Shown piece by piece: positions 8,459 to 22,108 of a stretch of DNA of 32,058 nucleotides. The translations under genes and the position numbers were made by a program. The notes under the pieces are model-generated. The model saw only the letters and a list, made by a program, of their open reading frames with translations, had not been told where the DNA came from and did no database searches. How positions within the stretch are numbered: position 1 is the stretch's first letter; each line of letters begins with the position of its first letter. Source of the DNA: Gammaproteobacteria bacterium (GTDB lineage: Bacteria > Pseudomonadota > Gammaproteobacteria > Steroidobacterales > Steroidobacteraceae); the NCBI GenBank assembly GCA_004297335.1, contig SCUD01000152.1:1-32058 (forward strand), written 5' to 3'.

Positions 8459-8818
8459 AGTGATGGGATAGACTCCCTCCGACTTGATTCCGGCATCATC
8501 GTGCCAGCTGGCCTCATATGGTGTAGGTGTCAGCACAAACCGGAAGGGGTCCTGACATGAATACTACGACTACGGCGCCCGTGATGGGAGTGGACCTGGC
8601 AAGACACGTCTTTGCGCTGGCGGTGGCCAACGGCGACTGGCGGATTACCGACCGGGCGTGCCCTCTCGCGCCGCCAGTTCGAGCGCTGGTTCGTGAACCG
8701 GCGCGTCGGGCTCGTGGTGATGGAACCCTGCGGCTCGGCCACCACTGGGGCCGCTGGCTGACTGGCCTGGGGATCGGGGTGAAGCTGCTGCCGGCCCGCT
8801 ACGTGCGCGCCTACGTTA
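8459..8818 (+). mobile_element. Truncated IS1111/IS110-family element with transposase remnant
   Basis: The left end (TGATGGGATAGACTCCCTCC) and the following leader match the left end of the complete element at 20483-21937. A transposase start at 8557 gives MNTTTTAPVMGVDLARHVF, against the intact MNTTTAAPVVGVDLAKNVF. Two compensating indels put residues corresponding to SRRQFERWFVNRRVGLVVM out of frame (about 8665-8740); the frame is then restored (HHWGRWL, VKLLPARYVRAYV). Homology stops abruptly at about 8816, just before the second acidic motif, and the rest of the element is absent. It is therefore dead, diverged, and older than the intact copy. Confidence 0.85.
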
Positions 8819-20437: not shown

Positions 20438-20458
20438 TCTGCGCGGCGCGGTCGAGGC

Positions 20459-20482
20459 CGCCGGGGTCCCGCTCGCAAACTC
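20459..20482. repeat. Left arm of 24-bp inverted repeat around the IS element
   Basis: CGCCGGGGTCCCGCTCGC followed by AAACTC is the exact reverse complement of 21938-21961. The two arms are separated only by the IS1111-type element, so before insertion they would have formed one hairpin. Confidence 0.88.
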
Positions 20483-20492
20483 CGATGATGGG

Positions 20493-20506
20493 ATGGACTC
20501 CCCCCG
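20493..20506 (+). repeat. Left subterminal inverted repeat of the IS1111 element
   Basis: ATGGACTCCCCCCG, an exact inverted match to 21911-21924. The remnant copy has ATAGACTCCCTCCG at its left end, 12 of 14 identical. Confidence 0.9.
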
Positions 20507-20577
20507 GTTTACGGCATCATCGTGCCAGCTGGGCTCATGTGGTGTGAGTGCCAGCGCCAACCGGAAGGAGTCCTGAG

Positions 20578-21669
20578 ATGAATACTACGACTGCAGCGCC
20601 CGTTGTGGGAGTGGACCTGGCCAAGAACGTATTCGAGCTGGCCGTCGCCGATGAGAACTGGCGGATCGTGCAGCGACATCGGCTGTCCCGCCGGCAGTTC
20701 GAGCGCTGGTTTGTCAACCGGCAGGTGGGGCTGGTGGTGATGGAAGCCTGCGGTTCGGCGCATCACTGGGGTCGCTGGCTGAGGAGCCTGGGGATTGAGG
20801 TGAAGTTGCTGCCGGCGCGCTATGTGCGCGCCTATGTCCGCCGCAACAAGACCGACGCGGCCGATGCGGCCGCATTGCTGGAGGCGGCGCGTTGCGGCGA
20901 GATCGAGCCGGTGCCGCTCAAGTCGGTCGAGCAGCAGGGCCTGCAGGCGCTGCATCGCATCCGTTCGCGGTGGGTGGCGACGCGCACGGCGCGGATCAAC
21001 GCGCTGCGCGGCTTCTGCCGGGAGTTCGGGATTGCGATCGTGCCGGGCAGCCGGGCCGGGGTCGGGCAGATCGCGCGGCTGCTGGCCGAGCCGGACCCGG
21101 CGATCCCGCTGGTGCTGCGCGGCACGATGGCGCAGCTGCTCGAGGAGATCCGCGCGCTCGAGGCGCGCATCGGCGGGCTGGAGCAGCAGCTGACCGACGT
21201 GGCTCGGCAGTCCCCGGCCTGTGCCACGCTGCTGACGATCCCCGGGGTCGGCCTGTTGACCGCGACCGCGCTGGTGGCCGCCACCGGTGGCGGCATCAGC
21301 CACTTCCGGGATGCCCGCCACTTTGCCTCCTGGTTCGGCCTGACGCCGCGAGAGCATTCCTCCGGCGACACCCGGCGTCTGGGCCGGATCTCGAAGCGCG
21401 GCGATCGATACCTGCGGACGCTGCTGACCCACGGTGCCCGCTCGGTCTTGCGCGCCGCCACGGCGGCCAGCCGGGCCGGCCGGCCGGTCGACCCCTTGCG
21501 CCAGTGGGCTCTCGCCATCCAGGCCCGCGCCAACCACAACAAGGCGACCTGCGCACTGGCCAACAAGCTGGCGCGCATCTGCTTTGCCACGCTGCGTGAC
21601 CAGGAGCCGTTCGGTGTGGCCCGCCTGCGCAGCAAACTGCAGCGCACCAGCTACGCGCTGTCGGCCTGA
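20578..21669 (+). CDS. IS110/IS1111-family DEDD transposase
   Basis: A 363-residue transposase. The ATG at 20578 follows GGAAGGAG; an earlier in-frame ATG lacks a site. The N-terminal DEDD domain shows VGVDLAKNVFELAV and TDAADAAALLEAAR; the C-terminal Transposase_20 domain has IPGVGLLTATALVAATGGG and the catalytic-serine-type region SGDTRRLGRISKRGDRYLR. It is intact, with no frame damage, unlike the remnant at 8459-8818. IS110-type transposases are guided to their target by an element-encoded bridge RNA. Confidence 0.93.
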   Translation: MNTTTAAPVVGVDLAKNVFELAVADENWRIVQRHRLSRRQFERWFVNRQVGLVVMEACGSAHHWGRWLRSLGIEVKLLPARYVRAYVRRNKTDAADAAALLEAARCGEIEPVPLKSVEQQGLQALHRIRSRWVATRTARINALRGFCREFGIAIVPGSRAGVGQIARLLAEPDPAIPLVLRGTMAQLLEEIRALEARIGGLEQQLTDVARQSPACATLLTIPGVGLLTATALVAATGGGISHFRDARHFASWFGLTPREHSSGDTRRLGRISKRGDRYLRTLLTHGARSVLRAATAASRAGRPVDPLRQWALAIQARANHNKATCALANKLARICFATLRDQEPFGVARLRSKLQRTSYALSA

Positions 21670-21937
21670 GACCAGACCCACCCACGCTTGCACGGGAGAG
21701 TGATCGCCCATCATGGCCAACCGGGTTCACCCCACACCGCGTGACGCCGATAAGTTCGTTGGCAGGCCATCTGCCGTTCACGACGATTGGCGCCGCGGTG
21801 CCGCAGATTCCATGTCGGCACGGGCGGCTTCAGCGCCCACTCCAGATGCCGGATATACGACTGCAGGCGATACCCGCACGGCCATTCCTGTCGATCAAAT
21901 CTCCCACTTGCGGGGGGAGTCCATATACAGAACTTAC
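21670..21937 (+). ncRNA. Candidate bridge-RNA region of the IS1111 element
   Basis: A 268-base non-coding right end lies between the transposase stop and the right edge. In the IS1111 subgroup the bridge RNA that pairs with target and donor is reported to come from the right non-coding end, whereas the left leader here is only 93 bases. The location is therefore inferred from family rules; I did not fold it, and the loop sequences are not assigned. Confidence 0.4.
21911..21924 (-). repeat. Right subterminal inverted repeat of the IS1111 element
   Basis: CGGGGGGAGTCCAT, an exact inverted match to 20493-20506. It shows that the element extends about 250 bases past the transposase stop. Confidence 0.9.
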
Positions 21938-21961
21938 GAGTTTGCGAGCGGGACCCCGGCG
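21938..21961. repeat. Right arm of 24-bp inverted repeat around the IS element
   Basis: GAGTTTGCGAGCGGGACC followed by CCGGCG, the exact inverse of 20459-20482. Confidence 0.88.
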
Positions 21962-22007
21962 ACCCCGCCAGCGCCGTTTGACGCCGTGGCTTTGGCTGCG
22001 GCAACGC

Positions 22008-22097
22008 GGCTGGACCGGGGTGGCGGGAGCGTCGCGAGCGAGCGCGTCAGTTCCGGCGGCGCGAGCGAGTGATCGGTCCCGCCACCCCGGTCCAGCC
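22008..22097. repeat. Large hairpin with 21-bp perfect arms
   Basis: Arms 22008-22028 (GGCTGGACCGGGGTGGCGGG then A) and 22077-22097 pair perfectly over a 48-base loop. The loop holds a direct repeat (CGCGAGCGAG twice). There is no T-run, so it is not a classical terminator. It lies just before the promoter of the PLP-enzyme gene and near the other palindrome that took the IS element, so this spot is rich in foldback DNA. Confidence 0.75.
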
Positions 22098-22108
22098 CGC
22101 CGCCCTTC

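What the first reader, a model, noticed from the sequence alone, without database searches (positions are those of the whole stretch)
20459..21961. IS1111 element nested exactly in the loop of a 24-bp palindrome
The element with 14-bp subterminal repeats is bordered on both sides by perfectly matching 24-bp inverted arms. Without it the site would be one long hairpin after apbE. Some IS1111-type elements home on foldback targets such as attC sites or REP palindromes; this may be another targeted hairpin family.
Basis: seen in the sequence. Interest (0 to 1): 0.6.

Follow-up and report, generated by a model that had tools for sequence, protein, structure and literature searches.

The report
Jumping gene retargeted to hairpin loop
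A small RNA-guided jumping gene whose known relatives mostly land in integron sites has here landed in the loop of a long DNA hairpin that is repeated in this bacterium and its close relatives, and its predicted guide RNA differs from theirs in a way that matches that loop.

Summary
A 1,442-bp IS1111-type element (20486-21927) sits in the loop of a long hairpin; the 24-bp perfect arms are the inner part of a 39-nt arm pair (35 of 39 match). The hairpin is not part of the element: the same genome has 17 exact copies of its uninterrupted loop motif, and a hairpin model finds it in 6 of 7 genomes of the genus and 0 of 91 outside. Three empty copies carry the loop CGACAGAACTTAC, split here as CGA|CAGAACTTAC without target duplication. 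Most relatives (about 70% protein identity) whose flanks could be read sit in integron attC sites (IS1111-attC group), and the tree nests this element among them. The guide-RNA region keeps the group's scaffold, but its two target-matching strands differ and fit the hairpin loop. By guide score the occupied site ranks first of 61,188 positions in the element-free window. Guides track their own targets across relatives (34 elements for one strand, 28 for the other; 0 of 5,000 shuffles as good). Best reading: natural guide-RNA retargeting from attC to a genus-restricted hairpin repeat. Only one such insertion is known; nothing was tested experimentally.

The parts
20444..20482 (+). 5' arm of hairpin H1 (inner 24 nt, 20459-20482, pair perfectly)
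   Evidence: repeated in empty copies
20483..20485 (+). left part of the split H1 loop (CGA)
   Evidence: empty copies C158, C101, C172 read CGACAGAACTTAC
20486..21927 (+). IS1111-type element, 1442 bp, LE TGATGGGATGGACTCC, RE GGAGTCCATATA
   Evidence: ends from empty sites and from relatives
20493..20506 (+). left subterminal inverted repeat (14 bp)
20578..21669 (+). intact transposase gene (363 aa; PF01548 + PF02371; GL-P----SG motif)
   Evidence: motif as described in PMC11187229
21743..21792 (+). predicted target-recognition domain of the seekRNA/bridge RNA: stem P1, internal loop, stem P2
21751..21759 (+). T-guide TAAGTTCGT: 7 nt complementary to the top strand of the right target (8 nt to the CCGAACTTAC loop variants)
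21781..21785 (+). B-guide core CGACG: fits the top strand across the insertion point (CGA|CA, last base a wobble)
21911..21924 (+). right subterminal inverted repeat (14 bp)
21928..21937 (+). right part of the split H1 loop (CAGAACTTAC)
21938..21976 (+). 3' arm of hairpin H1
22006..22098 (-). second hairpin H2 of the same repeat unit, inverted relative to H1
   Evidence: I2; model R1 hit on the - strand
8461..8816 (+). truncated relic of a related element (81% DNA identity, left end only)

Best explanation
The feature is a complete IS1111-family insertion sequence of the IS1111-attC clade whose non-coding guide RNA (seekRNA/bridge RNA, encoded between the transposase gene and the right end) has been naturally reprogrammed. 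Its relatives' guides read attC. Here the 5' strand of the target-binding internal loop (TAAGTTCGT) pairs with the right half of the hairpin loop, and the 3' strand (CGACG) fits the bases across the insertion point. The element therefore inserted, without target duplication, into the loop of a long-hairpin repeat. Shown by sequence: element ends, empty sites, guide-target match, position in the tree. Inferred: that the RNA is made and guides insertion, and that attC was the ancestral target. The hairpin offers a multi-copy target with a shared loop; whether the transposase needs the fold is unknown.
For: Empty copies give the ends and the uninterrupted loop. 17 exact loop motifs in the genome. 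27 of 34 elements with a readable guide and right flank have GTTA within 12 nt right of the element; further attC-like flanks in L058 and L166 and in the ISPa25-family element. The window transposase falls in a 31-row group (95/90 support) whose readable other members sit in attC-like sites, with attC-sited L166 and L073 just outside. The guide scaffold is conserved while the guides differ. Guides track their own targets: T sum 236 vs shuffle mean 203.6 and maximum 223 (34 elements), B sum 95.5 vs mean 81.3 and maximum 90.5 (28 elements), 0 of 5000 each; still 0 of 5000 with one row per distinct guide (17 and 15 rows). The window T-guide fits its own flank (7.0) better than those of the 33 others (maximum 6.0), and the occupied site ranks first of 61,188 positions by T+B score (10.5, next 10.0).
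Against: One insertion only: no second copy in this genome, and the left-end pattern (up to 1 mismatch) is absent from the 6 other genus genomes held. The T match to this loop is 7 nt; the two positions nearest the insertion point mismatch, and T alone reaches 7 or more at 72 of 61,188 positions. The pairing register is one base off from that of most attC relatives. Some attC rows fit other rows' flanks as well as or better than their own (for example L055, L062, L068). The genome encodes two integron integrases, so attC sites may be present, and the relic at 8461 has a left flank I read as attC-like. RNA expression is untested. The 131-nt local fold is no better than shuffles (z 0.18), although the 259-nt region is (z -4.49). 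The stem count on 24 guide loops beats shuffles on pairing and covariation score (0 of 500) but not on the number of pairs with two-sided change (217 of 500) or of pair types (80 of 500), and RNAalifold drew the second stem differently. Guide-target shuffles treat related elements as independent.
Confidence: 0.85

Rival explanations
1. The element recognises a folded hairpin (foldback) as such, as the first reader supposed for attC and REP targets, and the guide match is secondary.
For: attC sites (recalled) and this repeat are both foldback structures. The insertion point is in the apical loop of a stem of about 40 bp, and the stem is strongly constrained.
Against: The guide match alone ranks the site first in the window. 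Relatives' guides track target sequence. In relatives the insertion lies beside the GTTAGRC core, not at an obviously homologous place in a fold.
Confidence: 0.11
2. Chance or non-specific insertion into a hairpin, with a coincidental partial guide match.
For: Only one insertion is known, and the T match is 7 nt.
Against: The guide positions are homologous to those that covary with target in relatives; the site ranks 1 of 61,188 by T+B; the window T-guide fits its own flank better than those of all 33 other elements.
Confidence: 0.03
3. The arms belong to the element (a composite with long terminal hairpins).
For: In the window alone the arms look like long terminal inverted repeats.
Against: Empty hairpins without the element, relatives whose flanks lack these arms, and arms that differ from copy to copy.
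Confidence: 0.01

Closest known systems
IS1111-attC group (ISPa25, ISKpn4, ISPst6; Post & Hall 2009 and Tetu & Holmes 2008, not read, known here through PMC11187229)
   Same: transposase 48% identical to an annotated ISPa25-family element on NZ_CP137509.1 and about 70% to unnamed attC-sited relatives; same ends TGATGG(G/A)ATGGACTCC ... GGAGTCCATATA; same guide scaffold downstream of tnp
   Different: target is a genus-restricted hairpin loop instead of attC; T-guide TAAGTTCGT instead of TAAC..., B-guide CGACG instead of mostly A(N)CG
ISPa11 (IS1111) and IS621 (IS110) in REP palindromes
   Same: guide-RNA elements that insert at a specific place in a repeated extragenic palindrome (passages of PMC11187229, PMC11208160, PMC1525189)
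   Different: other elements of the families (not compared by sequence here); REPs are short (recalled), whereas this repeat is a pair of inverted hairpins with stems of about 40 bp; here the insertion is in the apical loop
ISEc11 / ISXne4 natural re-direction (PMC11187229, section read)
   Same: close transposases whose guide segments differ to match different targets
   Different: here the shift is from integron attC sites to a chromosomal hairpin repeat, with a tree placing the retargeted element among attC users

Membership tests
IS1111 family | transposase with the IS110/IS1111 domains PF01548 and PF02371 | tested here: met
IS1111 family | subterminal inverted repeats (7-17 bp) | tested here: met
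   14 bp; range from a passage of PMC11208160
IS1111 family | longer non-coding region downstream of tnp with guide-RNA features | tested here: met
   258 nt, conserved among relatives; transcription not testable
IS1111 family | circular intermediate and RNA-bound transposase | not testable with these tools
   needs experiment
IS1111-attC group | transposase and ends related to attC-targeting elements | tested here: met
IS1111-attC group | inserted in attC next to the GTTRRRY core (core motif recalled) | tested here: not met
   flank is CAGAACTTACGAG in a hairpin loop
Target repeat as REP/REPIN-like | dispersed palindrome in inverted pairs | tested here: met
   that copies are extragenic was not tested one by one
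Target repeat as REP/REPIN-like | linked to a RAYT (Y1) transposase (recalled) | tested here: not met
   two PF01797 genes in this genome, neither with the motif GAACTTAC in the fetched flanks of up to 1.5 kb; other genomes not examined

The most novel reading that the evidence does not exclude
An attC-specific IS1111 element switched, through coordinated changes in both strands of its guide loop, to a genus-restricted long-hairpin repeat whose shared loop (CCGNCNGAACTTAC) is itself an undescribed recognition site, for example of an unknown hairpin-mobilising enzyme. This would be a natural record of how a two-part RNA guide is rewritten to exploit another element's conserved tip.
Probability: 0.4. 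Interest if true: 0.65.

Novelty: new variant of a known kind. Interest (0 to 1): 0.5.

Why it matters
Guide-RNA recombinases of the IS110/IS1111 type are being developed as programmable DNA-insertion tools, but few natural changes of their two-strand guides have been described in what I could read. Here some 30 related elements with readable guides and flanks form a set in which guide and target covary, and one element has moved to a new class of site. That makes target-register rules and the order of guide changes testable. The hairpin repeat is also a strongly constrained genus-level element for which I found no description.

Tried and rejected
Arms as element ends: rejected by empty copies. 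Chance palindrome: rejected. Known RNA family: no Rfam match in the window at gathering thresholds. REP/RAYT link: two Y1 transposase genes lack the loop motif in their fetched flanks. attC sites: a strict scan of the window and of three integrase loci found attC-like repeats only in L188 (G002), none in the window or in the two own-genome integrase loci L187 and L194. The own-genome attC pattern was written in the wrong order (R' before R'') and says nothing. Same guide elsewhere: one exact 20-mer had 0 matches in viral contigs; no plasmid DNA match to the non-coding region. Guide table: 36 rows; L077 and L132 dropped for missing right flanks; six rows lack a left flank and are not in the 28-row B test; other fetched relatives had no readable guide or end. 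L074 has a misread right end; dropping it leaves 0 of 5000 for both guides. For L130 I moved the right end by one base by hand before the test. In one search a loose pattern picked wrong stretches for many rows; I picked the 24 rows by hand and left out the others. One search was a translation in the wrong frame. The near-invariance of the loop among the 16 aligned copies is partly by construction, as they were chosen by the motif; congener copies found by the model show a GAACT tip in 14 of 16 loci read, but the model includes the tip. Tetu & Holmes 2008 is not held.

Full report
WHAT IS THERE. The window holds a complete IS1111-type element at 20486-21927 (1,442 bp) with 14-bp subterminal inverted repeats (20493-20506 / 21911-21924) and one intact transposase gene (20578-21669, 363 aa, PF01548 and PF02371). 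It lies downstream of apbE (PF02424), in what I read from the ORFs as a nitrous-oxide-reductase gene cluster (names recalled). On both sides are inverted arms: 24 nt perfect, 39 nt with 35 matches. This is the longest exact inverted repeat (spacing under 2.5 kb) in the window; the runner-up, 21 nt, is the second hairpin next door.

EMPTY SITES. A search of the window's own draft genome (187 contigs) found the palindrome without the element in several contigs. Three copies (C158, C101, C172) have the loop CGACAGAACTTAC; C72, C108 and C119 have CGCCCGAACTTAC; one C16 copy has CGTCCGAACTTAC. The occupied site reads CTCCGA|element|CAGAACTTAC, so the element went between CGA and CAG with no duplication (one base ambiguous). 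Exact matches to CCGNCNGAACTTAC number 17 in the genome, none in the window, where the H1 copy is split (with one mismatch allowed 39 in all, including H2-type tips, against 14 for the reversed-pattern control). At least one of the 17 (C51:34613) is itself a second, inverted hairpin.

THE REPEAT. A hairpin model built from 16 copies finds the repeat at E 1e-5 or better in 6 of 7 genomes of the genus and in 0 of 91 others (strict filters, 43 or fewer candidates scored per genome). The unit is a pair of hairpins in inverted orientation (H1 and H2). Over the 16 copies, 22 of 34 stem pairs have changes on both sides that keep pairing (0 of 500 shuffles). The loop bases are nearly invariant, but these copies were picked by a loop motif. 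Among 16 congener loci found by the model, 14 show a GAACT-containing tip on a strong hairpin and 2 (L170, L184) do not in the scan made. Some own-genome hairpins have another tip.

RELATIVES SIT IN attC. A scan of genome contigs returned 51 loci. Searches of whole genomes gave matches in 11 of 98 relatives (E 1e-60), 8 of 217 of the family (1e-90) and 7 of 396 of the order (1e-120), the own genome counted. Their ends are the same (TGATGGGATGGACTCC ... GGAGTCCATATA), and the right flank is typically CGANNGGTTAGRC, which I recognise as the integron attC core (motif recalled). Of 34 elements with a readable guide and right flank, 27 have GTTA within 12 nt. The seven without are this one; L038 and L130 (GGATA); L062, L086 and L133 (near variants); and L074, whose right end was misread by my script and whose flank reads ACTGGTTAGAG. 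The only plasmid match at E 1e-60 is an ISPa25-family element (48% identity), which shows the same ends, guide scaffold and an attC-like flank. PMC11187229 (abstract, sections 6, 9, 10, 13, 14 and passages read) says that ISKpn4, ISPst6 and ISPa25 target attC and ISPa11 targets REP. In the transposase tree (46 rows) the window falls in a 31-row group (95/90) with attC-sited relatives; attC-sited L166 and L073 branch just outside, and the GGATA-sited L038 and L130 outside those. The order within the 31-row group is partly open, and the tool warned of long branches elsewhere. That attC is the ancestral target is an inference from this one tree.

THE GUIDE. In IS1111 elements a seekRNA downstream of tnp carries a segment complementary to the top strand of the target, followed by one complementary to the bottom strand (PMC11187229). 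Aligning the non-coding regions shows a conserved scaffold with two variable strands between GCCGAT and ATTGGC, which can fold as stem, internal loop, stem. The structure count over 24 rows supports pairing (85% of cells, covariation score 0 of 500 shuffles; one outer pair is C-G in 17 and A-U in 7) but not on two of five measures (217 and 80 of 500). Guides track targets: L038 (TATCCTGCG against CGCAGGATA), L131, and L130 (after I moved its right end by one base) match 9 of 9. Over 34 elements the T sum is 236 against a shuffle maximum of 223; over 28, the B sum is 95.5 against 90.5; 0 of 5,000 each. The base at position -1 agrees in 19 of 28 (shuffle mean 9.4). With L074 dropped, without the window, or with one row per distinct guide, the count stays 0 of 5,000 in each variant run. 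Single rows vary: several attC elements fit another's flank better than their own, and related rows are not independent, so these are not exact probabilities.

In the window the T-guide is TAAGTTCGT: 7 nt pair with GAACTTA, and 8 nt with the CCGAACTTAC variants; the B-guide CGACG fits CGA|CA. With the element removed, the occupied site is the single best of 61,188 positions on both strands (10.5; next 10.0), whereas the attC flank of L060 scores T 2.5 (4.5 in the other register) plus B 2.5. Weak points: the T-guide alone reaches 7 at 72 positions, the register is one base off from most attC relatives, and there is only one insertion.

MECHANISM. Most likely the transposase-RNA complex of a circular element located the loop by base pairing to both strands and recombined there, as shown experimentally for other family members (PMC11187229, PMC11208160). 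The fold may help by exposing the loop, but nothing here requires it.

COMPARISON AND NOVELTY. Palindromic repeats as targets are known: IS621 and ISPa11 in REPs (passages of PMC11208160 and PMC11187229); ISPsy8 (IS3 family) inserts at the symmetry axis of a predicted REP hairpin (passage of PMC1525189). Natural re-direction is known for ISEc11 and ISXne4 (PMC11187229, section 10). In six literature searches (listings only, with passages or sections read in three papers) I saw no report of an attC-clade IS1111 moved to another site or of this hairpin repeat; the library holds only open-licence papers. I file it as a new variant of a known kind.

Noticed in passing
22006-22098 and own-genome contigs C5, C16, C30, C43, C51, C72, C90, C101, C108, C112, C119, C158, C161, C172: A repeat restricted, among the genomes searched, to this genus: two inverted long hairpins with strongly covarying stems and an apical motif CCGNCNGAACT(T/G/C)AC; what mobilises or uses it is unknown.
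   Followed up: partly
8461-8816: Truncated relic of a related IS1111 element (81% DNA identity), left end only, with a left flank (ACCGGTGCAG) that I read as attC-like.
   Followed up: partly
L187 (own genome C121:14067-15008) and L194 (C103:296-1228): Two integron integrase genes over the TIGR02249 cut-off in the same genome; a strict scan found no attC repeats in these two loci.
   Followed up: partly
L188:134-263 and 742-871: In congener G002, attC-like 130-bp repeats (GTTAGAT/C ends) lie beside an integron integrase.
   Followed up: no
L020 (own genome C104 end): The contig end carries AGATCGGAAGAGCG, which I recognise (recalled) as sequencing-adapter sequence, right after a degenerate hairpin copy: probably an assembly artefact.
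   Followed up: no
L108 (own genome C95:12678-12911) and the C16:40132-40381 copy: Some hairpins carry a different tip (GAATTCAGGATCG type), as if tips were exchanged between stems.
   Followed up: no
L038 and L130: A sister branch (about 59% identity) whose guide and flank both read GCAGGATA rather than attC: another natural difference in target.
   Followed up: partly
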